Shown here: one piece after another, positions 1 to 34,186 of the stretch
Layout: each line of letters starts with the position of its first letter
Position numbering within the stretch: position 1 is the first letter of the stretch
Assembly: GCA_030430025.1 (NCBI GenBank)
Contig: JAUIGR010000025.1
Span: 1-34,186 of the forward strand
Source: Gammaproteobacteria bacterium
GTDB taxonomy: Bacteria; Pseudomonadota; Gammaproteobacteria; Xanthomonadales; Marinicellaceae
Direction of reading: 5' to 3'
DNA: 34,186 nt
Notes under the pieces: generated by a model
What the model saw: only the letters and a program-made list of their open reading frames with translations
The model's database searches: none
Told to the model about the DNA's origin: nothing
Made by a program: the position numbers and the translations under genes

Positions 1-5
1 TAAGG

Positions 6-89
6 TCAAAAAACATCAGCAAAATCACACTTTTGCGCTTAAGTGTTTTTTTGACCAATGCTGGAAAAGGCCAGGATGGACTTTTTCAG
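6..89 (-). repeat. Inverted copy of the IS110-associated repeat
   Basis: The reverse complement of this stretch matches 19328-19410 over about 83 bases, with one substitution and one single-base indel by eye. It contains the same internal hairpin (cactt...aagtg). The match ends close to the window edge, so the element may continue to the left. No transposase sits beside this copy: the dioxygenase gene follows directly. This suggests a short non-coding repeat rather than a full insertion sequence. Confidence 0.85.
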
Positions 90-151
90 GACTGACTAAT
101 TAACAATATCAAGATGTCTTGAAGTAAGGTTAAGCTATCGAGGTGCCTAGT

Positions 152-10862: not shown

Positions 10863-11327
10863 CAAAAAATATCTATTGCTTTATCGCCTGCATCAGGATT
10901 TGTTGATGGTATCCAATTGGCGTAAATATCACCCGGCAATAGCCATTTAGCATGGTCCATTTGATTGGCTACCCACATAAGAGGCTCACCCGCAGAGAGC
11001 ATCATTGATGCGTATGTTTTCCGTGTCTGATATATGCGCCTGTGGTTAATGTCATTATCAGCCAGTTTCTTTGTCCATATCTAGAACCTTCCGCGATTCC
11101 ACTGCTCACCCGTTCTGGGGTTTACAAAGACCAATCTTCTGTTCATATACGTGTATTGCATCTGGTGTTTTAACGCCTCGTAAACTGGTTGCAGCATTTT
11201 AATGTCTCGTATAGATGAAGGTGTTTTTGGCACCTCAGGCTCTTTTGCGCTGTCTGTTTGTGACTTATTGATACGGATTGTCATGTCAATATCCTGCCAG
11301 GTTAGCCTGAGAGCCGTATGGAAGCGG
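10850..11327 (-). pseudogene. Tyrosine recombinase (integrase) remnant
   Basis: Only the C-terminal half of a phage-type integrase remains. Reading the minus strand: RLTWQDIDMTIRINKSQ, then VPKTPSSIRDIKMLQPVYEA, then YMNRRLVFVNPRTGEQW, an in-frame TAG at 11081-11083, and in the same frame YQTRKTYASMMLSAGEPLMWVANQMDH and LLPGDIYANWIP, ending at TGA 10850-10852. The arginine of the box II region, the later histidine and the tyrosine before the end are still recognisable. The usual histidine after that arginine is lysine, and the consensus LGH is MDH. No N-terminal half is visible upstream, where a short dispersed repeat begins. It lies about 120 bases from tRNA-Pro. Confidence 0.85.
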
Positions 11328-11328
11328 C

Positions 11329-11433
11329 GAGTAAAAAAGCATTGAAATACTTGTTTTCTGGTCGAAAAAATATGGAGATTGTAATAAATTCATCTTATCC
11401 AACAATAACTTATGCATTTTTCAGGTTCGACTA
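11329..11433 (+). repeat. Dispersed short repeat, copy 1
   Basis: About 105 bases related to 19459-19568. Shared blocks are tgttttctggtcgaaaaaat near the start and tatgcatttttcaggttcga at the end, with divergent middles. The second copy has inverted ends (gtcaagtctgaaaaatg...catttttcaggttcgac), the layout of a MITE-like element; here the left end is degraded (gagtaaaaaagcat). It begins where the integrase remnant ends. Confidence 0.65.
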
Positions 11434-11436
11434 TTT

Positions 11437-11469
11437 AACAATAAGTTATGCAATTTTCAGGTTAGACTA
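11437..11469 (+). repeat. Extra copy of the repeat's right end
   Basis: The last third of the preceding repeat is present a second time directly after it (aacaataagttatgca, then attttcaggttagacta). It is a tandem partial duplication or the end of another copy. Confidence 0.65.
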
Positions 11470-11670
11470 ATTAGGCATTTTGAGGCATCAGAACCTGATT
11501 GGTTAGTCAGTTCGAGTTATACACCTTTATTTTGGTCAATAATGACCTTTTCGGATGTATTCGTCAAATCCGGGTAAAACCTCATGGTTATAGGATTAGG
11601 TTCGAATAGCTATTTAAATATTGATAAATGAAATTATTCTAAAAAAGTTTCAGTTAGTAGCACAAATAGT
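11470..11670. other. Gene-free stretch between the integrase scar and the cspA-like promoter
   Basis: With the repeats, the leader and the dead integrase this forms a long stretch (10732-11914) without an intact gene. I see only a small stem (ggtca-ataa-tgacc, 11534-11547) followed by Ts, and no coding signal. No copy of the tRNA-Pro 3' end (a second attachment site) is visible here or elsewhere in the window. Confidence 0.4.
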
Positions 11671-13738: not shown

Positions 13739-15544
13739 TTATTGTCCTGTTTCTAAACCATCTTCGAAAATAATATCACTCAGGTAAGTTTCATCAGCGC
13801 CGATGTCATAAGATCCTATGTAATTATCTTGTTCGGGGTCGTCCCAACCTCGTGTTTCACCATCACTATCAAGCCATTCGGTTTGTATAAATTGATCACT
13901 ACAAAAATCGTTGGCTGGTGATTGTGGCAGAATGTGATAATCGTCCATTTCACTGTTGACAAACAAAGGATCATCAACTTCAAGTATGGCGATACCTTGA
14001 TCGATAGGCTCACTGCCGTTATGAATCATCAGACAATTTGTGTTAGTGACGGTATTGAGTCCTGCTAGAAAGATAATCTGTGGCGGTATTCCGTATTCTA
14101 AGGAATTGAAAATGATAGAAGAGTATATTTCGGCCTTGCCAGGGCTAATAATAGTAATGATTTTGCTATTTCCGTCATCTTTGATGTAGTTATTAACTAT
14201 GGTGTTATAGTACATCTTAAGCAGTGGATAATCCTCTTCATTTATCACTCCGACGGGGCCTTGTTGGTGGAATAGACTATAGTCAATGTCTCTGCCATTT
14301 TTATAAATGTAGTTGCTTTCAAAATGGGTTACGGCATTTGGGCCATAGGAAAAAAGCAATACACCTTCTGCAGAACCTTCTGATTCCACGGTATTTTCTT
14401 TAATGGTTGTATGTTTGATTGAGGCCTGTCCACCTTCACTTATGGCCAATAAGATACCTCCAAGATCTGAAGTATTGTTGCTTATCACATTACAGTTTTC
14501 AATTTTTTTGCAAAAGCTGATGTCTGATGATGAAACATCAAGCTTAGCATCGCTGCTAATATGAAAGACAGCGCCTGCCTGCCTGCTGAAGTTTCCTGTT
14601 GCTAGAAAGTCTTGTATCTTGACTGATGTGCCGTTTCCGGTTGCATAAATGGCGCCACCTTGACCACTGTATTCAGCATTGCCAGAAGCTGAGTTGTGAG
14701 ATAGTGAAGTGATTTTATGATTGTCTCCAGTAATAACTACTTCTGAACCTCCAGCAGCATAAATGGCACCACCATGTCCTCTCTCAGGTATATTATCTGC
14801 ATTTGATGCTGAATTAAATGAGATACCTCCGTTGGATTGATCTTCAATGTAAAGACGACTCTTCAGTCGACAGCTGAATAAGAACATACCCCCACCGTTA
14901 CCATTTGTTGACTGATTGTTTCTTATCCCTTGATACAGGGTATCATCGGTAGTATTTAAATGAATGCTTGAACTATTATTTTCAGAGTAACAATAGATTC
15001 CGCCTCCATCAACTGCTGCTATGTTATTATTTATCCATGTGTCGTTGGCGTTTATATTAACTGTACCGCTGAGAATAAGTATGCCCCCACCATAGGCTCC
15101 TTGATTGTTTCGTATCCACACGTCTTTCAACTCTAGATTGACATTTGCAAATAGGATCGTCAGACCGCCACCTAGATCATCATTTTTACCGTTGGTGATT
15201 TCTATCCGTTCCAGTGTGATTGTGTTCACAATGGGGTTGTTGCTTTCTGTTATGGTAATAACGCTACCTAAAAGACCAGCATCTATGGCTGCTCTTCCTG
15301 TGCTTTGATTATTGGCTTCAGCATCTTGGCAATTAGCATAACCGCCTTTGATTGTTATATTTTGATCTTGTAGCTGCAATGTTTCCTGATATACACCATT
15401 GACGATGAGGATTTCATCGGGATTGTTAGCCAGCGCTCCGTTGATTGTCGTGTAATCACAGCCATTGGGTCCGACAGTATATGTCAGCCCATACGCACTT
15501 GATGACAGCAGAGTCATCATGACAACAAAAATATTAATATTCAT
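13739..15544 (-). CDS. Secreted right-handed parallel beta-helix protein (choice-of-anchor Q)
   Basis: About 601 residues. It begins with a signal peptide (MNINIFVVMMTLLSSSAYG, cut probably after AYG). The sequence TYTVGPNGCDYTTINGALAN and an ITIKGGYANC element lead into many short Gly-Gly-Gly/Asn-rich turns (DLGGGLTIL, GAYGGGILIL, VDGGGIYC, GNGGGMFLF, GHGGAIYA, GQGGAIYA) typical of right-handed beta-helices. The C terminus has the choice-of-anchor Q pattern (DDPLFVNSEMDDYHILPQSP, then SDGETRGWDD and YDIGADE), followed by SDIIFEDGLETGQ. ATG 15544 lies behind AGAGGTG; the frame also has a GTG just before. Function unknown; a surface or polysaccharide-related role is only a family-level guess. 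It is a paralogue of the gene at 19976-21757. Confidence 0.85.
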   Translation of the reverse strand: MNINIFVVMMTLLSSSAYGLTYTVGPNGCDYTTINGALANNPDEILIVNGVYQETLQLQDQNITIKGGYANCQDAEANNQSTGRAAIDAGLLGSVITITESNNPIVNTITLERIEITNGKNDDLGGGLTILFANVNLELKDVWIRNNQGAYGGGILILSGTVNINANDTWINNNIAAVDGGGIYCYSENNSSSIHLNTTDDTLYQGIRNNQSTNGNGGGMFLFSCRLKSRLYIEDQSNGGISFNSASNADNIPERGHGGAIYAAGGSEVVITGDNHKITSLSHNSASGNAEYSGQGGAIYATGNGTSVKIQDFLATGNFSRQAGAVFHISSDAKLDVSSSDISFCKKIENCNVISNNTSDLGGILLAISEGGQASIKHTTIKENTVESEGSAEGVLLFSYGPNAVTHFESNYIYKNGRDIDYSLFHQQGPVGVINEEDYPLLKMYYNTIVNNYIKDDGNSKIITIISPGKAEIYSSIIFNSLEYGIPPQIIFLAGLNTVTNTNCLMIHNGSEPIDQGIAILEVDDPLFVNSEMDDYHILPQSPANDFCSDQFIQTEWLDSDGETRGWDDPEQDNYIGSYDIGADETYLSDIIFEDGLETGQ

Positions 15545-15806
15545 CACACACCTCTTATAAAATTAAAAATGTAATGATGTGTTTTCAACTGATCTAATGA
15601 TTAATTTTTATGCTCAACATTTGAGTTAATTGAGAATTTTTCACACACCATCAGCTATACCATCGTAAAAAAAGAGAGAAAAAGTCCACAAAGAACGATT
15701 TTTTTTGTAAAGGCTAACAAATCGTGTTATTTATTGGTGTTAATGATTTAATTTTTTGTCAGTCATAGAATAAACTAAACCTTATTTTGATTAGTAAAGA
15801 ACAGTT

Positions 15807-18060: not shown

Positions 18061-18081
18061 GGTGATCTTGAGCCAAAAGTC

Positions 18082-18136
18082 TAATGAGTCAACCCTGAAA
18101 AAGTCCATCCTAGCTTTTTTCAGGGTTGACTCATTA
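18082..18136. repeat. Perfect 21-base-pair hairpin at the left edge of the IS110 relic
   Basis: Two arms of 21 bases (18082-18102 and 18116-18136) are exact reverse complements around a 13-base loop. Its core (gtcaaccctgaaaaagtcc) recurs with few changes at 19321-19339 in direct orientation, and at 79-98 in inverse orientation. It may be the left end or the target of the element. Confidence 0.9.
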
Positions 18137-18152
18137 TAGGGCACTTCTATTA

Positions 18153-19206
18153 ATGAGGCAATTTTTCTGGCTAAGAACCGCAGGGCAAGGGATCATTTGC
18201 TTTGTTGGACTTTTTGTCAAGGCAATGAGCATTCACTGCAAAGTGCGCCTTGCATATGACGCCTTGTCAACTTGCAGAAGAAATAACTCACCGAAACTGT
18301 CATTAATGCACAACCAGAAACCATCTTCATGGAGTCCTGTTATTCAGCCAACGCATGGGGCAGACAGTTCCAATCGATGGGCTTTGAAGTCAAACTGATT
18401 CCAGCACAACACGTCAAACCCTTCGTTAAGGGCAACAAAAACGATCACCACGATGCGGTGGCCATCTGTGAAGCCAGTATGCGACCTGGTATTCACTTTG
18501 TACCCGTAAAAACCCTTGAGCAACAGGACCTACAAAGCATGCATCGGATCAGGCAAAGACTGATCCGTGAGAGAACATCACTAGTTAATCAAATTCGAGG
18601 GCTACTTTCAGAGTACGGCATCGTCATAACCCGCAGCTACCGTTCCATGAAAGTACAGCTACCATTAATCATCGAGGATATTGAAAACCAGCTGACTTTC
18701 TTAATGCGAGATATGCTCAATGACTTGTTGGAGGAACTACACACCAGTAACCAACGGGTCAAAACCATAGAACAAAAAATAGAAACCACTGCTGCCACTC
18801 ACACTGAATACAAGCGAATGATGGACATCCCAGGTGTTGGTCTCATAACAGCATCAGCACTGATTGCTCAAGTTGGCGATGCCAAACACTTTAAAAGTGC
18901 ACGTGGATTTGCAGCATGGCTCGGACTGACTCCTAAGCACCAAGCCAGCGGGAATAAAATCGTCAACCAAGGCATGTCAAAATGGGGTAACAAATACTTA
19001 AGGACAATGCTTATTCATGGGGGACGCATTGTGCTAACCCACTGCAAACAGGAAAGCACACTGCAAAGATTTGCCAAACAAGTTGAACAGCGGAGGAAGA
19101 CACAAAGCCGCAGTCGCCACCGCCCACAAAATGGCCAGAATCATCTGGGCAGTCATGACAAGCAAGCAACCCTACAATCCTGAACACATACTCACCATGA
19201 AATAAA
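18153..19206 (+). pseudogene. IS110-family transposase, frameshifted
   Basis: Fragments of one protein are spread over frames. An N-terminal piece (FLAKN, then QGNEHSLQ) is followed by a shift near 18240 to HMTPCQLAEEIT and another near 18288. A long intact centre then runs LTETVINAQPETIFMESCYS, HVKPFVKGNKNDHHDAVAIC and MMDIPGVGLITASALIAQVG to SKWGNKYLRTMLIHGGRIVL. A shift near 19095 leads to the true end AAVATAHKMARIIWAVMTSK, finishing at TAA 19204-19206. The aspartates of NDHHDA (RuvC-like part) and the serine of KHQASGNK (position of the catalytic serine in the family) remain. The damaged N-terminal region removes the first catalytic aspartate, so it should be inactive. Confidence 0.9.
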
Positions 19207-19320
19207 CACAGAATAAACAAGCCAAAACAAGTCAGACAGCATGATGATAAAAAGGTAACCCGACCTGACTCAAAACTGAACTTAGGGTAAGGCTTAATAA
19301 GGCCATTGAGGTGATTAATA

Positions 19321-19410
19321 GTCAACACTGAAAAAGTCCCTCCTGGCCTTTTCCAGCATTGGTCAAAAAACACTTAAGCGCAAAAGTGTGATTTTGCTGA
19401 TGTTTTTTGA
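19321..19410 (+). repeat. IS110-associated repeat, copy near the relic
   Basis: Positions 19328-19410 match the inverted copy at 6-89. Its first 45 bases also resemble the hairpin at 18082-18136 (gtcaacactgaaaaagtccctcc against gtcaaccctgaaaaagtccatcc). It contains a smaller hairpin cactt...aagtg (19370-19388). Confidence 0.85.
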
Positions 19411-19423
19411 GCTCACTTGATCC

Positions 19424-19462
19424 TGACGGCTCAAGGTGGCACTTCCCTGTGCCACACCGTCA
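19424..19462 (+). repeat. Two-step GC-rich hairpin
   Basis: GTGGCAC (19436-19442) pairs with GTGCCAC (19449-19455) around a six-base loop, and outside it TGACGG (19424-19429) pairs with CCGTCA (19457-19462). It lies right after the IS110-associated repeat, so it could belong to a bridge-RNA-like structure or be an independent element. Confidence 0.6.
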
Positions 19463-19568
19463 AGTCTGAAAAATGTATCAAGGCACCTGTTTTCTGGTCG
19501 AAAAAATGTGCAAGATTGAAGTCGATCTTTATATTTGACAATAAGTTATGCATTTTTCAGGTTCGACT
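19459..19568 (+). repeat. Dispersed short repeat, copy 2 (MITE-like)
   Basis: About 110 bases with inverted ends (gtcaagtctgaaaaatg at the left, catttttcaggttcgac at the right), related to 11329-11433. No open frame of its own. The end motif (c)ctgaaaaa preceded by gtc resembles the ends of the IS110-associated hairpins, so both may belong to one family mobilised by the same enzyme. Confidence 0.65.
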
Positions 19569-19975
19569 AAGTAAGTCAAGTTCGGATCTCATCAAGGCTA
19601 AGAGGCAACGAAGCACTCACAAAAAGGCCGGATATATGTCTGAAACCAATTTAGCCATCAGCTAAAAAACTTGTTATGGGGCTCCGCCCTATACCCCGCT
19701 CATCACATGAGGGGTGTGAAAGGAGTTAAAGGCAATGATTTAACAATTAATCCTGAAATAACACTGGAATTATCAGAGGCGTTCATATATGCCCTATAGA
19801 CCTTTCTTTAGGTGTTCTTTTGGGTTTTTTTAATGAAATTTCTTTTAGAGTGACCTTTTATTGGGTCAGATTACGATGGTTGCAATGTGTGAGTGATTTG
19901 GAATGAATATCGATGAGTGAGTTTTTATTATATACAGCAACATAGATGCTGTTAATCAAAAAAAGAGGTAGCTTT
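19569..19975. other. Gene-free stretch before the second beta-helix gene
   Basis: About 400 bases without a supportable gene. The part 19569-19740 (with ggggctccgccctataccccgc) looks like the tail of a decayed mobile element, which I could not identify. The part 19790-19960 is AT-rich and probably contains the promoter of the next gene; I cannot pick a clear -35/-10 pair. Confidence 0.35.
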
Positions 19976-21757
19976 GTGAATCAATTTAAATATTTAGGTT
20001 TTGTGTGTATTTTTCAGTCGTGTATCGCTATGGGTGGATCACCTAAGTTAGACCTGAGTGACTTTGTACAGATGAAATTACAGTATGGAAATAAAGGAGG
20101 GGGGGTGGTTGTAACTGTTGGCACCATTGGGTCATGTGATTATGCATCAATCAGTGAAGCGATCAATTCTGGTGCTGATGAAGTTCGGGTGTCATATCAG
20201 GAAGGAGGTTATGTAGAAAATCTACTTGTGGACAGTGTTGATTTAGTGATTAAGGGTGGTTATGCAGATTGTACGGACGCACAAAATGATGTTTTTAATG
20301 GATCACTGACGACAATTGATGGAGGAGGTGTTAATTCTGTTATTCGGGTAACTACTCAAGATGATACGGAAAGGGTAGTTATACTTGAAAATTTACTGTT
20401 GACTAATGGTTCTGGTATAGATGCAAATTATCCTGGGGGTGGTTTGTCTGTCTATGATGCCGCTTTGGACATGACCATAAGAAATGTCGAGATCACTGGT
20501 AATACTGGCATATCTGGTGGCGGTTTGGCTTTAGTCGAGGGCGGTAGTGTTGATATGTTGATTGAGCAATCGAAGATTCATGCCAATGAAGCTGACATAG
20601 GTGGTGGTTTATATTGTCATTCTGGTATGCGAGTGGTTTTTGATCAAAGTGCAGGTATATATGGAAATCAAGCTTCTGATACAGATGGTGGCGGTATTTA
20701 TGGAGAGGGTGGTTGCCGAATTTATAGTTATGGTGGTGATGATAATGCTTTGAGTGGTAATAGTGCGAGTAGACATGGCGGAGGAGCCTACATTACTGAT
20801 TCGGCACATTTATATCTGCTTGGTTTTCAATATTGTGTAGAGGATGTTTGTTTTGGTGATGAGAGCAGTTTGGTGTCAGTGATTGGCAATAAAGCACAAG
20901 CAGGAGGTGGTATTGATCCTGGTGATGGGGGTGCTATTTTTGCCTCTGGGATAGGTACATTAGTTAATGTTTTTAATGCCGATGTCAGTGAAAATAGTGC
21001 TCGTTGGGGTGGTGCATTCTCAGTGACTAATGAGGCAAAGCTCAATATTGAAAGATCCAGTAGTGTAAACTGCGACCAGTGTAGTCGTCTTATTGCTAAT
21101 GATGCGGATGTTGGTGGTGTGTTATTTATGGACTCTTCTGCTGAGGCGACAATCAAAAGTAGTTATGTACAGAATAATCGGGCAGATGTAGTTACATTTG
21201 CTTCACTTTCTGGTGCTTCTGTGTTGACGATCGCAGGTACGGTTATAACTAACAATGGAGATAATGGGGTTGGATTTGATGATCATTGGTTAATGACTAG
21301 TACTGACTCAGAACTCATAGTCAATTATACTACAATAGCTGATAATCATACCGATTTCATATCTTTGATAGCGTTAACTGGTGGTTCTCTGAGTATTAAT
21401 TCTTCAATTGTCTATGAATCTGTACCTATTGATATTTTAAGTACTGATGGAGAGGTTGATACCAGTTTCGACTGTTTGATAACACATGAGAATGTATCAA
21501 TAAACGGAGCCACACGTTCCACTGTTGATGATCCGTTGTTTATAGATCCATTGAATCATGACTATCATATTTCACCGAGCTCACCAGCTGTTGACTATTG
21601 TGATGAATCGGTGGTTGCCGCGGTTGGAGGAGATATGGATAGTGAGCAATGGGGTTGGGATGACCCCAATAAGGACAATACATATGGTGTATTTGATATT
21701 GGTGCTGATGAAACCTATGCCACTGATGTGATTTTTGAGGATGATTTTGAAGGTTAA
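19976..21757 (+). CDS. Secreted right-handed parallel beta-helix protein (choice-of-anchor Q), second paralogue
   Basis: About 593 residues. The start is GTG 19976, placed correctly behind AGAGGT (19964-19969), with a signal peptide (NQFKYLGFVCIFQSCIAMG); the frame is open ten codons earlier to an ATG. It shares the plan of the 13739-15544 protein: GSCDYASISEAINSGADEV, VDLVIKGGYADC, many Gly-rich turns (YPGGGLSV, DIGGGLYC, TDGGGIYG, RHGGGAYI, DGGAIFA), a conserved Cys pattern, and the C-terminal block DDPLFIDPLNHDYHISPSSP, QWGWDDPNKD, FDIGADETY, ending TDVIFEDDFEG. Function unknown. The two paralogues lie in opposite orientation around the exporter and the IS110 relic. Confidence 0.85.
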   Translation: MNQFKYLGFVCIFQSCIAMGGSPKLDLSDFVQMKLQYGNKGGGVVVTVGTIGSCDYASISEAINSGADEVRVSYQEGGYVENLLVDSVDLVIKGGYADCTDAQNDVFNGSLTTIDGGGVNSVIRVTTQDDTERVVILENLLLTNGSGIDANYPGGGLSVYDAALDMTIRNVEITGNTGISGGGLALVEGGSVDMLIEQSKIHANEADIGGGLYCHSGMRVVFDQSAGIYGNQASDTDGGGIYGEGGCRIYSYGGDDNALSGNSASRHGGGAYITDSAHLYLLGFQYCVEDVCFGDESSLVSVIGNKAQAGGGIDPGDGGAIFASGIGTLVNVFNADVSENSARWGGAFSVTNEAKLNIERSSSVNCDQCSRLIANDADVGGVLFMDSSAEATIKSSYVQNNRADVVTFASLSGASVLTIAGTVITNNGDNGVGFDDHWLMTSTDSELIVNYTTIADNHTDFISLIALTGGSLSINSSIVYESVPIDILSTDGEVDTSFDCLITHENVSINGATRSTVDDPLFIDPLNHDYHISPSSPAVDYCDESVVAAVGGDMDSEQWGWDDPNKDNTYGVFDIGADETYATDVIFEDDFEG

Positions 21758-25277: not shown

Positions 25278-25414
25278 GCCATCATTTTACCTGAACTGGC
25301 TATCCTTGATGGTCAGATTAATGTTGATTGTTAATGGCACCTCTGTTATGAGTTATTTCTTCTGCAAGGTGACAAACCGTCATATGCAGGGCGCACTTAA
25401 GTCAAAATAAATTG

Positions 25415-28637: not shown

Positions 28638-29945
28638 TCACAAATCAAACCCATCCTCAAAGATCAAATCATCATAAGGAACATAGCGATACCCTATATT
28701 TGGCACAGTATCGTTATCGTTATTATAGTTAGGTCCCGGTTCAGCAATACATCCACAAGGATGTTCCAGGCCGATGGTGGCATTTGTTTCGCCATCATCT
28801 GTTGAACTGGAAGCATAGTGCAGTTCGATAACATCACTGCCTTCATACAATTTGGCTTGAGCCCAGATATTATCATCATCACTACCGAGTATTCTGACTG
28901 ACTGGTAGTCAACAATCAGCACTCGGTTAGGCTCTTGACCTTGAACAACATATGAAATCTGATCAGTGAAGCCATCATTTTGAGCAACTATTAAATCATC
29001 CCAAAAGACTGCAATAATGCCATCAGGACTTCCTACTGGATCTGGCAAAGTATCATTGGCAAGGAGATCTCCAGGCTCACCCTCAGGAAAGACCAAATAA
29101 CCATTGGAACTAACTCTTAGGCTGTTATACTCTTCTCCGTAAAACTCAAACGGAAAGGGTAACAGTATTTCGGTTTCCTGATCATCATAGGAATCAACCA
29201 ATCCATCAAAAAGCATTTCCCTGTCAGGTAAGCCTTGCATGTTTTGATAAGCTTGATTCACTTCACTGCGTGTGTAATATTTAGCTACTGGTGTATAGCG
29301 ATACGCCTCATCTGGCACAACATCATTATCTTTACGGTAGTTAGGACCCCTAACAGCCAAACAGCCACAAGGATGCTCTAAACCGATAGTCGCTGTAACA
29401 CCTGCTCCTGTTTCGGCAGCTCCATAGTGAAGTTCTATCACCCCAGTCCCTTCATACAATTTCGCCTGAGCCCATAGATAACCAGAATCAACCTCCCAAA
29501 ATGACACCGAAGTGTAATCAACAATCAACACCCGATTGGGAGCCTCTCCCTGAACAACATATGAAATCTGGTCCGGGCTTCCTTGCTCTGGAGTCACCAG
29601 CAAATCATCCCAAAAAACAGCAATGATACCATTTGGCCCCCCAGAATCGGGCAAAGGGTCATTGAAAACACTGACTCCTGACTCACCCTCAGGAAAAACC
29701 AAATAACCATTGGTACTGACCCTTAGGCTATTGTACTCTTTTCCGTAAAATGGAAATAAAAATGGCAAAGGTATTTCAGCATCTTCATCATCATAGAAAC
29801 CTTCATCCCCATCAAAGAGTAACACCCTGTCAGGCAAACCAAAAATTTCTTGATAATTCATAGCAATCGGCTCAAATTCATAATCTACTTGCGCCCAACA
29901 AAAACCAAGATATAAAAATGAAACCAAACAAAGTATTTTTTTCAT
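28638..29945 (-). CDS. Secreted two-repeat nidogen-like protein
   Basis: 435 residues. A signal peptide (MKKILCLVSFLYLGFCWAQ) precedes two copies of one domain of about 190 residues (roughly 26-215 and 230-425). Each copy has GLPDR..LFDG, an FPFYG or FEFYG followed by EYNSLRVS(T/S)NGYLVFPEGE, GIIAVFWDDL, DQISYVVQG..PNRVLIVDY, WAQAKLYEG..VIELHYG or HYA, and IGLEHPCGC. This NGYL..FWDD pattern resembles nidogen-like extracellular domains. The strong similarity of the copies points to recent duplication. The C terminus YVPYDDLIFEDGFDL carries the IFEDGF tail shared with the beta-helix proteins. A very strong ribosome-binding site precedes it. Function unknown, presumably surface-located or exported. 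Confidence 0.8.
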   Translation of the reverse strand: MKKILCLVSFLYLGFCWAQVDYEFEPIAMNYQEIFGLPDRVLLFDGDEGFYDDEDAEIPLPFLFPFYGKEYNSLRVSTNGYLVFPEGESGVSVFNDPLPDSGGPNGIIAVFWDDLLVTPEQGSPDQISYVVQGEAPNRVLIVDYTSVSFWEVDSGYLWAQAKLYEGTGVIELHYGAAETGAGVTATIGLEHPCGCLAVRGPNYRKDNDVVPDEAYRYTPVAKYYTRSEVNQAYQNMQGLPDREMLFDGLVDSYDDQETEILLPFPFEFYGEEYNSLRVSSNGYLVFPEGEPGDLLANDTLPDPVGSPDGIIAVFWDDLIVAQNDGFTDQISYVVQGQEPNRVLIVDYQSVRILGSDDDNIWAQAKLYEGSDVIELHYASSSTDDGETNATIGLEHPCGCIAEPGPNYNNDNDTVPNIGYRYVPYDDLIFEDGFDL

Positions 29946-29959: not shown

Positions 29960-30281
29960 AACATGTTAACTAATCATTCATACCATCGATAATTAACAAT
30001 AAAGAAGGTCATTTTCTTGATGTTTTTTAATTTTAAGAGGCATGTGTATAACCAGTATTGTTTGTCGAGATGTTTTAAGATCTTGCTATGAACAGACTAA
30101 ATCATTGACTCAAAAAAATATTTTAACCACAAAAGGTTTCAATCATGAGAAGTTATATAGTCTTGATACCACAGGAGAACTACTTGAGAAAAATCAAAAT
30201 ATACTAATTGGATTAAGGTTCAACAGCAGAAATTTGTTATACTAATACGAGTAATTGGTGGTGGGGTTCATTGGAGGTCAA
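29960..30281. other. Gene-free stretch between divergent genes
   Basis: About 320 bases, AT-rich. A 67-codon frame (30042-30245) is open, but its composition and lack of relatives known to me give no support. TATACT at 30238-30243 may be the -10 element of the GGDEF gene, without a clear -35. Confidence 0.35.
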
Positions 30282-31244
30282 TTGATACATACTAAAAGAA
30301 GCGCCAAAGAAAAACTTGTTATTGCCATTTCTGTTTCTTACGGTTTGTGTGTTGGTATATTCGCTATTATGCGATTTATCAATCGAGATTGGTTGATTGG
30401 TCTTGTTGATAGTATAGCTGTAATATTTGCGTTGTATGTTGGATATTATGTTTATAAAACTCGACAAACACGTTTTGCTAGTTATGCTATGGCAACAGTT
30501 ACTCTATTGGGGACGGTTGTTTCAATAGGTATTAAAGGCAGTACTCAGGTTTTTTGGGTTTATCCTTCGGTAATTTTGATTTATTATCTGATTCCACCTA
30601 AGTCTGCTGTTGCTTTTTCGGCTTCTTTTTTCTTGGCTTTTACTTTTTTCTTCAGTGATTTGCCTGCGCTCACTTACTTCACTACTTTGATGACATTCTT
30701 AGTTACCGTGTATTTTTCGTACCTTTTTTCAGTACAGTGGGCTGAAATCAATGAAAAATTGCGTTCTATGGCAACAGAAGATATGTTAACAGGAGTCGGT
30801 AATCGACGTGCTTTACATGAGACAGTTGATATGATCAAGTCAGATCATTTATCTGCATCAGCTGTTATGATTGATGTTGATAATTTTAAAAAAGTGAATG
30901 ACTTACTGGGTTATCAGAAAGGCGATAAAATTCTAAATGATACGGTAGAGATTATCGACAACCAAGTGGCGGACGATGATCTATTATTTCGTTTAGGTGG
31001 AGCCAAATTTGTTTTAATTTGCTTGCATCAAGATTTTGATCATGCTTACCAAACTGCTGTGCGAATTAGGGCTGCGTTCAATCAATCGTATTTATATATA
31101 GAAAACGGAGTTTCTCTCTCTATGGGTGTAGCTAAGAAAGATGCAGAAGAATCTGCAGATGGATGGCTTGATCAACTCAATTCTGCAGTTTTTAAAGCCA
31201 AAAGAACGGGAAAAGATCGTATTATTAAAGCCATAAATTATTAG
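30282..31244 (+). CDS. Membrane protein with degenerate GGDEF domain
   Basis: 320 residues with about six membrane helices in the N-terminal half (about 12-150), then a GGDEF domain (about 160-320). The domain start EDMLTGVGNRRALHE, the metal-site region MIDVDNFKKVND and the following GYQKGDKIL are well kept, but the signature is RLGGAKFVLI (30996-31010) instead of GGDEF or GGEEF. Losing both acidic residues should abolish cyclic di-GMP synthesis. It may instead bind GTP or a partner, as known degenerate GGDEF proteins do. I chose TTG 30282 behind GGAGGT (30273-30278); TTG 30255 and GTG codons upstream are possible, but a likely -10 element sits just before them. Confidence 0.85.
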   Translation: MIHTKRSAKEKLVIAISVSYGLCVGIFAIMRFINRDWLIGLVDSIAVIFALYVGYYVYKTRQTRFASYAMATVTLLGTVVSIGIKGSTQVFWVYPSVILIYYLIPPKSAVAFSASFFLAFTFFFSDLPALTYFTTLMTFLVTVYFSYLFSVQWAEINEKLRSMATEDMLTGVGNRRALHETVDMIKSDHLSASAVMIDVDNFKKVNDLLGYQKGDKILNDTVEIIDNQVADDDLLFRLGGAKFVLICLHQDFDHAYQTAVRIRAAFNQSYLYIENGVSLSMGVAKKDAEESADGWLDQLNSAVFKAKRTGKDRIIKAINY

Positions 31245-31310
31245 TTTATCTTTGTTTTTCTATTTTATATGGCATCATAGTATCACTTTGAATTGAATTC
31301 ACAGGTTAGG

Positions 31311-33944
31311 ATGCCAGACATCAAATTGTATTTCAGTCATTCGGTTGAGCATTTAGCGACGCAATTGCATCGTCACCTGAAGTCAGAAAGAACTGACTTT
31401 TCTTCGTTATTAAAGTCGCAGGAAGTTATTGTACCTAATGGAAATATGCAGCAATATTTGCAAACGAGTTTTGCTCGTAAAGACGGTATTTGTGCCAACA
31501 TTGAATTCCCATTTCTAGAAACAGGTTTGTTTCAGTTACTGAGTAGTTGTTATCAGAGTGAACAGCAAATAACCCAATTAAATCAGACTGATTTGGCTTT
31601 GAGGATATGGCAAAGGTTATATGATATCGATTTGTTGGATGATGAATTATATTGTCATATAAAACGCTATTTATCAGTTGACGATACTGCTGCATTACTG
31701 AGCAAGAAGCGATGGCAATTAAGTCAACGATTGGCTTTGCTTTTATTGGATTATGAGCTGAAACGACCTGAAATGATACTCGCTTGGCTTAAAGACAAAC
31801 GGGTGTTTAAGTACAGTCGGGATACGCGTTTGATTACGCTTGAGAATATGCAGGCCGACTTGTATATGTGGTTGTGTCAAAACTGTGGGCAGCAAAAAAC
31901 GCTTTTTCAGCTGTGGAATGGGTGGCAAGCGTCTTCTTCACAACAGACTGCCAGCGTACATTTATTTACACCGAATCGACTGTCTCAACTTCATCGTCAA
32001 GTGTTGTTGGATTTGTCAAAAATATATCAAATCCATATATATAGTTTGAATGTTTGTGCTGAGTACTGGCAGGATGTCAGTACGTTGGGTGAAGATATTT
32101 GGCGTAAACGTCTTACCAATCAGCAACTAAAAGTCACTGATATGGATGGCCAAGCTATCGCGGCTGATGATATGCAGTCCGAGGTTTTTCTTGAAATGGA
32201 TGATGAATTGGTTGAAAACCCTTTGCTGAAATCTTGGGGTAAGCCGGGTCGAGAAGTTTTAAAGTTGTACAGTGATTTAGAAGATGATGCCATTCATTTT
32301 GATGTTGCTTTTTCTGATGAGTGGTTGGATTCTGAACAAGAGAGATCTGACCATATGTTGCATTTGATCCAGGATGCTATTTTATTCCGAGCATCAGGTG
32401 ATCAAGAAATCACCGAACAACAACAACTTGATAGTTTACAAGTGATTAAGGCGCCATCTATAGAACGAGAGGTGGAAGCAGTTTACCATGACATTTTATT
32501 TCAGCTTGGACAGAATGCCAAATGGCAACCGGCTGATATCGCTGTCTTAGTCACCGATATAACACGATACCGTTTTGTTATAGAACAAGTGTTTTCAGAA
32601 TTGAACCGACAAACTGGTGCTGACCTGCCATTTACTCTTATAGATGTTTCAGTGAACACGGAAAGTCATTACAGCCGAGCAGTTATTGGTTTGATGGCGC
32701 TAATAACAGGTGGATTTAAACGCGGTGAGTTTTTTGAATGGTTACGTAATCCTTGTGTTATGTTTGGTTTAGGAATCAGTGAACTTGAATGGGATCAGTG
32801 GTTACAAGCTGTTGATCAATTAGGCATCTTTGCAGGTTTCGACCAGTTATATGAAGGACAAACTTGGGGACATTTGTTTACTTGGAAACAAGGTTTACAA
32901 AGATTACACCGTTTTTTAGCTAATGATGAAGAAGATCACAGTGGTTTAGATGCTGAGTCTATAGGTAAGCTCAGCGTATTGCTGAATTATCTGCATCAAC
33001 AACAGTTGCAATGGCAACACAATCAATCAGTTATTGATTGGGTGATGATGTTGTCATCGGTTTTTGAGCATCTGTTATCAGTACCAGATGACTTACCCAA
33101 TGAGTTGCATGTCCAAATGTCGCTGATGCAATCGTTACAGAGATTAACACAACAGGTATCTGGTTTGCGTTTAAGTTTCGATGACATGTATCAGTTCATC
33201 GAAGCAGAACTCCAGGGGTTGTCAGCGAGTGGGGGGTACTATGCAACTGCTGGTGTTGTTTGTGCAGCATTACAGTCTATGCGCCCCATCCCTTTCAAGG
33301 CGACTTATGTTTTAGGATTGGATGGCCATACATTTCCTGGCCAATTGCGTCATGAAACCCTTGACTTAACGGCTCGATCCAGACGAATAGGGGATATTAA
33401 TGGTATTGAGAACAAACAATACTTGTTTTTAGAAACTTTGATGTGTAGTCGTGATAAGTTATGGTTGTCTTATGTGGGTGAAGACTTGAAGAAAAATGAA
33501 ACGGTTGAACCTTCTTCTGTGATTGTTGAATTATTGTCCTTTTGCGATACTTTCCTGGATCATCAGTCTTTAGAAATAACCTCTTTCCCAGTCTTTGAAA
33601 TTCCTCTTGATATGTCTACTTGTTTCACAGAAGCAAAAGGTGTTTTGCCTGACAATCTACTGGTCAATCATAATCCTTGGGATGAACTGCGGATATTGGC
33701 TAAATATGGAGAGACTGAAGCGATGGCATCAGCATTGGCTTATCAGGATCATTCAATGCAAGCATTCAGGCAGGCAGCTGACTGGTATTTGTCATCATCT
33801 GAATCAGAGTCTTCAGATGATACCGAATTAAAAGATATCATCGATATAGATATCAAAGAATTAGCGAGTTTCTTGGAATGGAAGATACCATTCTTTATTC
33901 ATCTTGCTTTGATGCAAACGGTGGATTATTTGAAACCATACTAA
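31311..33944 (+). CDS. recC: RecC (exonuclease V gamma subunit), truncated at a junction
   Basis: RecC is the Chi-recognising subunit of the RecBCD helicase-nuclease used in break repair. Matching parts: [59 protein letters not shown] near the N terminus; [15 protein letters not shown], the residues [20 protein letters not shown], and [29 protein letters not shown] further on. The recC signal runs to about KELASFL (33855-33872). After that the reading frame gives 23 residues unrelated to RecC and stops at 33944, while another frame carries kbl. The C-terminal part, about 250 residues in typical RecC of roughly 1100, is therefore missing. ATG 31311 is preferred over TTG 31293. As it stands it is probably not functional. 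Confidence 0.85.
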
Positions 33945-34186
33945 CTGATGAAGATGCGATTATTTCTGATTCGCTTAATCACGCTTCAATTATCGATGGT
34001 GTCAGATTATCAAAAGCAAAGCGTTTCCGTTACGCAAATAACGATATGGCAGATCTTGAAGCGCAATTAATCGCTGCTAATGAAGCTAATGCAAGATATA
34101 AACTAATCGCGACCGATGGTGTTTTCTCCATGGATGGTTATTTAGCCAATTTGTCAGCAATTTGCGATCTTGCCGATAAATATGAT
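33851..34186 (+). pseudogene. kbl: Internal piece of kbl (2-amino-3-ketobutyrate CoA ligase), both ends missing
   Basis: In the frame that reads gag at 33866, the sequence gives [80 protein letters not shown] and [20 protein letters not shown], then CDLADKYD at the window edge. This is the centre of glycine C-acetyltransferase, a pyridoxal-phosphate enzyme that splits 2-amino-3-ketobutyrate from threonine breakdown. The family N terminus (about 100 residues) is absent; in its place lies recC. The frame stays open to the last base, so the 3' part may continue outside. tdh, its usual neighbour, is not seen. Confidence 0.9.

What the first reader, a model, noticed from the sequence alone, without database searches (positions are those of the whole stretch)
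33840..34186. recC breaks off and continues as the middle of kbl
Within about 30 bases the coding signal changes from RecC to the central part of 2-amino-3-ketobutyrate CoA ligase in a different frame, with neither gene's natural end or start. The two readings overlap at aaagaattagcgagtttctt, where both give a plausible family sequence (KELASFL and QRISEFL), so microhomology may have guided the joint. Either this is a true rearrangement that destroyed recC and kbl, or it is an assembly chimera near a contig end.
Basis: partly seen in the sequence, partly recalled or inferred. Interest (0 to 1): 0.75.

Follow-up and report, generated by a model that had tools for sequence, protein, structure and literature searches.

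The report
Assembly chimera at a contig end
The sudden switch from a DNA-repair gene to the middle of a metabolic gene is almost certainly an artefact: about 310 bases of another bacterium's DNA were stuck onto the end of this contig, while the rest of the repair gene and this bacterium's own copy of the metabolic gene sit on other contigs.

Summary
The recC frame fits its family to about 33878 and, in another frame, the middle of kbl runs from about 33855 to the contig's last base. The window is the whole of contig C101 of a 114-contig draft, so the joint lies about 310 bases from a contig end.

The missing 3' part of recC opens another contig, C2, two codons downstream of where C101 leaves recC. 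recB, recD, a VOC-like gene and proC follow, nearly the order of relative G013, which has one extra gene. The genome has its own complete tdh-kbl pair on contig C95; that kbl is only 65% identical in protein to the tail. The tail groups with kbl of the Aliikangiella clade (up to 94.5% protein identity), apart from the genus's own kbl. No other piece of this foreign kbl was found in the assembly.

So there is no sign that recC or kbl was destroyed. The tail is foreign DNA wrongly joined to C101 inside a stretch of up to 24 bases that fits both genes. A merge of two genomes at a shared k-mer is the likeliest route; reads would be needed to prove it. Ordinary artefact.

The parts
31293..33878 (+). 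5' part of recC (exodeoxyribonuclease V gamma subunit) up to the joint; its 3' part is bases 2-1015 of contig G000:C2 (L120)
   Evidence: TIGR01450 E 1.4e-91; alignment with 17 same-genus RecC; continuation on C2
33855..33878 (+). Joint zone of up to 24 bases in which both the recC reading (KELASFLE) and the kbl reading (RISEFLG, from 33857) fit their families
   Evidence: RecC alignment; kbl DNA comparison 14-18 of 24 bases in 11 of 12 rows, 9 in the other
33879..34186 (+). Foreign tail: middle of a kbl gene of the Aliikangiella clade, running to the contig's last base
   Evidence: NF005394; 77% DNA identity to Aliikangiella marina L034; best 79% DNA in 40 genomes of that family; tree
30255..31244 (+). 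GGDEF-like gene upstream of recC; a similar gene stands upstream of recC in relatives G013 and G006
   Evidence: ORF lists; the name and the likeness are by eye from the protein sequences

Best explanation
An artefactual chimera at a contig end. In the real chromosome contig C101 is most likely followed, some 5 to 29 bases after the joint, by contig C2, with one recC across them and then recB and recD. Instead, the end of C101 carries about 310 bases of a kbl gene from another bacterium (of the Aliikangiella clade) whose DNA was in the same sample or read set. The probable step is a wrong turn at a short stretch (about 20-24 bases) common to this recC and that foreign kbl: a de Bruijn assembler sees one node with two ways in and two ways out and pairs them wrongly. 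Shown: the abutting recC parts, the conserved gene order, the separate own kbl, the foreign affinity of the tail. Inferred: that the assembler and not a chimeric library molecule made the joint, and that the sample was mixed. The confidence given is for an artefact of either origin; the library variant is listed among the rivals as a share of it.
For: The missing RecC C-terminus gives one match in the genome at E <= 10, C2:8-1012 (E 6.2e-74), in a frame open from the contig's first bases, 40% identical to G013 RecC residues 926-1264. In the alignment with 17 relatives two codons separate C101 'LASFLE' and C2 'SVEYL', and none of the 17 has a gap there. C2 then has recB, recD, a VOC-like gene and proC, as in G013 apart from one extra gene there. 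17 of 17 same-genus genomes have a RecC match, 42-60% identical, 16 of 17 in an open frame of at least 1192 aa, the 17th (G009) 925 aa. Own kbl and tdh on C95 are complete and above curated cut-offs; that kbl is 72% (DNA over 179 bases) and 65% (protein) identical to the tail. 15 of 17 same-genus genomes have one kbl match each at E <= 1e-30, 64-70% identical to the tail; G008 and G010 have none at that cut-off. The tail falls in a clade of 9 rows (support 100/94): the tail, Aliikangiella marina (L034), 6 further rows from its family, and one MAG row labelled Acidimicrobiaceae (L096); the own kbl groups with its genus (100/93). The joint is about 310 bases from a contig end.
Against: No reads are available, so coverage across the joint cannot be examined. 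C101 and C2 share no 10-mer around the break on the same strand, whereas plain de Bruijn contigs often overlap by about k bases (recalled); trimming or another assembler must be assumed. The donor species is not among the genomes searched: best DNA identity 79%. The exact length of identity between the true recC and the donor kbl is unknown, because neither source is held across the zone. The tree has 110 columns, an unsettled bootstrap and many open forks; 3 family rows (L154, L157, L163) and L049 fall in another clade, and one family row (L162, 92%) was dropped as too short. That the sample was mixed is inferred.
Confidence: 0.96

Rival explanations
1. Variant of the best explanation: a chimeric molecule made in the library (whole-genome amplification, PCR template switching or ligation) rather than by the assembler. 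A real read carries the joint, but the genome does not.
For: Gives the same picture: foreign tail, short shared stretch, recC continuation and own kbl elsewhere.
Against: A rare chimeric molecule would have to win over the normal reads that C2's start implies; nothing here separates it from the assembler error.
Confidence: 0.2
2. True insertion or horizontal transfer: a piece of Aliikangiella-type DNA lies inside recC in this genome or in a part of the population, and both contigs break at its edges.
For: The tail is foreign in affinity and C2 begins almost exactly at the break.
Against: No other part of that kbl was found in the genome by its family profile (a very short piece could be missed); C2 starts with recC and not with insert sequence; no repeat of recC bases on the two sides (no shared 10-mer); the tail starts in mid-gene and kbl is not a mobile element; the insert would have to end exactly where C2 starts.
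Confidence: 0.03
3. True rearrangement between this genome's own recC and kbl.
For: Two genes meet at a short stretch that fits both.
Against: The own kbl is complete and only 65% identical in protein to the tail; the rest of recC is on C2 with recB and recD.
Confidence: 0.005

Closest known systems
Interspecies chimeric contigs of de Bruijn metagenome assembly ('chimeric nodes' of MetaVelvet; PMC8171044, 12 passages seen by term search)
   Same: A stretch common to two species becomes a node with two ways in and two ways out; wrong handling gives a contig whose parts match different species.
   Different: That paper speaks of stretches common to evolutionarily similar species; here the shared stretch is at most 24 bases between two unrelated genes, and the foreign part is a short contig-end tail.
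recC-recB-recD gene cluster (exodeoxyribonuclease V)
   Same: C101 and C2 together carry recC, recB, recD in the order of relative G013.
   Different: recC is split over two contigs, and about 5-29 bases of it lie in neither.
tdh-kbl threonine catabolic pair
   Same: Complete on contig C95.
   Different: The kbl piece at the window's end is not this copy (65% protein identity).

Membership tests
Interspecies assembly chimera at a contig end | The two parts of the contig have different taxonomic affinity | tested here: met
   recC: best matches among 60 relatives are the 17 of the same genus, 42-60%; tail: Aliikangiella clade, own kbl elsewhere in the tree
Interspecies assembly chimera at a contig end | The true continuation exists elsewhere in the assembly | tested here: met
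   C2 starts with the rest of recC, two codons on, followed by recB, recD
Interspecies assembly chimera at a contig end | The joint lies near a contig end | tested here: met
   C101 is 34186 bases long; the joint is at 33855-33878
Interspecies assembly chimera at a contig end | A short stretch shared by both sources at the joint | tested here: inconclusive
   Up to 24 bases fit both families, but neither source is held across the zone
Interspecies assembly chimera at a contig end | Contig overlap of about k bases at the graph node (usual in plain de Bruijn output, not defining if ends are trimmed; recalled) | tested here: not met
   No shared 10-mer between the first 400 bases of C2 and window 33001-34186, same strand
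Interspecies assembly chimera at a contig end | No or few reads across the joint, or a change of coverage there | not testable with these tools
   No reads available
Real gene-destroying rearrangement of recC and kbl | No complete kbl and no recC continuation remain | tested here: not met
   Complete kbl on C95; recC continues on C2
Real gene-destroying rearrangement of recC and kbl | The kbl piece is this genome's own | tested here: not met
   65% protein identity to the own kbl, up to 94.5% to a genome of the Aliikangiella family

The most novel reading that the evidence does not exclude
A part of the population of this bacterium carries a fragment of Aliikangiella-type kbl DNA inside recC, a recent illegitimate transfer guided by a 20-24 base shared stretch, and both contigs happen to break at its edges.
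Probability: 0.03. Interest if true: 0.3.

Novelty: not a real feature. Interest (0 to 1): 0.04.

Why it matters
It matters only as a warning. Taken at face value, the contig would suggest loss of recC and of kbl; the rest of recC with recB and recD, and a complete tdh-kbl pair, are on other contigs. A short foreign tail at a contig end can pass standard contamination checks (0.28% contamination is given for this genome) and feed false gene fusions or transfer events into databases. The last 310 bases of C101 should be flagged as not belonging to it.

Tried and rejected
Rearrangement of own genes: rejected, because the own kbl is complete and divergent from the tail and recC continues on C2. 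A second native kbl typical of the genus: not supported, because 15 of 17 same-genus genomes show one kbl match each at E <= 1e-30, none above 70% identity, and 2 of 17 (G008, G010) show none at that cut-off. Another recC in the genome: the recC profile gives, besides C101, only a weak match on C53 (23.2 bits, E 1.2e-5, profile 512-683, in a 732-aa frame), which I did not follow; the window's RecC protein matches C101 alone. The profile itself does not find the C2 part, which shows only with a relative's RecC. Finding the donor: in 40 genomes of the family of G061, 36 with a match, the best DNA identity over most of the tail is 79% (one short piece of 203 bases, G067:C11, reaches 80%). Direct overlap of C101 and C2: no shared 10-mer on the same strand between the first 400 bases of C2 and window 33001-34186 (about 0.5 would be expected by chance), so the adjacency rests on protein alignment and gene order. 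Chance sharing of k-mers: under independent bases at 39% GC, a 3.08 Mb genome and 1e9 other bases would share about 3800 21-mers and 68 24-mers, and with a single 5 Mb genome about 19 and 0.34; the amount of other DNA is my assumption. In the same call the counts between 91 kb of own sequence and 794 kb of the 80 fetched kbl loci exceed the uniform expectation 1.25-fold at k=10, 6.5-fold at k=16 and more above. I did not separate the causes; kbl homology in the chosen loci must inflate the long ones, so they are no control for chance. A tree row was lost to a length filter (L162). First literature search, five terms, all required: no paper; the second listed 10 of 145 papers, of which one was looked into by passages.

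Full report
What is there. The window is one complete contig, C101 (34186 bases), of a draft genome of 3082451 bases in 114 contigs, given as 97.47% complete and 0.28% contaminated. A recC reading frame starts at 31293 and is open to 33944. It matches TIGR01450 recC over profile positions 2-740 of 1063. Near its end a second frame, open to the last base of the contig, matches glycine C-acetyltransferase (kbl), profile positions 94-204 of 397.

Where the joint lies. In an alignment with 17 same-genus RecC proteins the window fits up to '[12 protein letters not shown]', whose last base is 33878, and then departs. DNA matching to Aliikangiella kbl starts at 33855 and to the own kbl at 33854. In 33855-33878 the window agrees with 11 of 12 compared kbl rows at 14-18 of 24 bases (the 12th, L158, gives 9, apparently through a shift in register; L153 and L034 are the same gene, and L006 is the own kbl), against 5-8 of 18 in the bases just upstream in all 12 rows.

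What became of recC. A search of the same genome with the C-terminal part of a relative's RecC gives one match at E <= 10, C2:8-1012 (E 6.2e-74), in a frame open from the very start of contig C2. C2 opens with 'SVEYLTRQGMMIKP...', and this part is 40% identical to G013 RecC residues 926-1264. The NCBIfam profiles do not recognise it by themselves (0 families at E 0.001), so its identification rests on the relatives. In the alignment two codons separate the last fitting residue of C101 from the first of C2, and none of the 17 relatives has a gap there. About 5 bases are thus missing between the parts if the joint is at the right edge of the zone, about 29 if at the left. C2 goes on with recB (TIGR00609, E 8.7e-145, 484.5 bits, below its cut-off of 696.05), recD (TIGR01447, 383 bits, above its cut-off), a VOC-like gene and proC. 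G013 has a GGDEF-like gene, recC, recB, recD, one further gene on this strand, the VOC-like gene and proC in this order. G006 has two small genes like those at window 27738 and 28139, then the GGDEF-like gene, recC and recB up to its contig end; the window has an additional gene at 28638-29945 on the other strand. The names GGDEF-like and VOC-like, and the names of the genes around recC in G013 and G006, are mine by eye from the protein sequences. recC thus appears split by the assembly, not by nature. The first 400 bases of C2 share no 10-mer with window 33001-34186 on the same strand.

Whose kbl is the tail. The genome has one complete kbl, C95:20602-21750, with 644.7 bits against a cut-off of 493, next to a complete tdh (both confirmed). 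It is 72% identical to the tail in DNA over 179 bases and 65% in protein. The other matches to the kbl profile at E <= 0.001 are the tail itself, a family relative on C9 (264.3 bits, below cut-off) and a distant one on C62 (25.9 bits), so no further piece of the tail's gene was found. In the search of 61 genomes (own plus 60 relatives) 54 have a kbl match at E <= 1e-30; of the 17 same-genus genomes 15 have one each, 64-70% identical to the tail, and G008 and G010 have none at that cut-off. In 40 genomes of that organism's family 36 have a match and the best DNA identity over most of the tail is 79% (one piece of 203 bases reaches 80%), with up to 94.5% protein identity among the 10 loci compared. 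In a tree of 120 rows the tail lies in a 9-row clade with support 100/94, with Aliikangiella marina, 6 further rows of that family and one long-branched MAG row labelled Acidimicrobiaceae (L096); three other rows of the family (L154, L157, L163) fall with L049 in a separate clade, and L162 (92% identity) was too short for the filter. The own kbl groups with its genus with 100/93. The alignment has 110 columns, the bootstrap had not settled and many forks are open. The tail is foreign to this genome; its exact species is not held.

Mechanism. A foreign mid-gene fragment at a contig end, an abutting true continuation on another contig, and a short stretch fitting both sources are what a wrong turn at a shared k-mer would produce. 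The MetaVelvet-DL paper describes such nodes with two ways in and two ways out and reports chimeric contig length ratios from 0.194 (the lowest) to 0.516 on a CAMI low-complexity data set (PMC8171044, passages seen by term search). Under independent bases at 39% GC, chance sharing of 21-mers between a 3.08 Mb genome and 1e9 bases of other DNA would be about 3800, of 24-mers about 68 (the amount of other DNA is assumed, and the 24-base identity itself is not proven). A chimeric library molecule would look the same. A weak point is the absence of a k-sized overlap between C101 and C2, which calls for trimming or another assembler type.

Verdict. The tail should be flagged and not annotated as a gene fusion or a gene loss.

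Noticed in passing
window 1-103, 11298-11473, 18079-18290, 19315-19573, also 2038-2263 and 25349-25398; L120 and L118 (C2, C95): Short dispersed repeats (about 40-260 bases, mostly 80-98% alike; the two copies folded form hairpins, without a shuffle control) occur many times on C101, C2 and C95 of this genome and gave no match in the stretches of three same-genus relatives (L114-L116, about 30 kb together) at E 1e-6. They may be more than one family. The window's 5' end breaks inside one copy. The Rfam scan of the window gave one tRNA only.
   Followed up: partly
window 18126-19183: An apparently disrupted IS110-like transposase (two overlapping frames, 18126-18398 and 18329-19183) lies among copies of the dispersed repeats; the family name is by eye, not from a call.
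   Followed up: no
window 13739-15547 (-), 19946-21757 (+), 28638-29945 (-); L120 9180-10769: Four large proteins that look secreted by eye end in a similar short tail (IFEDGLE, IFEDDFE, IFEDGFD, IFADDFE), perhaps a shared C-terminal sorting or processing signal of this lineage.
   Followed up: no
window 28683-29856: The gene at 28638-29945 holds two tandem halves about 70% identical in DNA.
   Followed up: no
G000:C53:37840-38361 (L005): A weak recC-profile match (23.2 bits, profile 512-683) in a 732-aa frame, perhaps another helicase.
   Followed up: no
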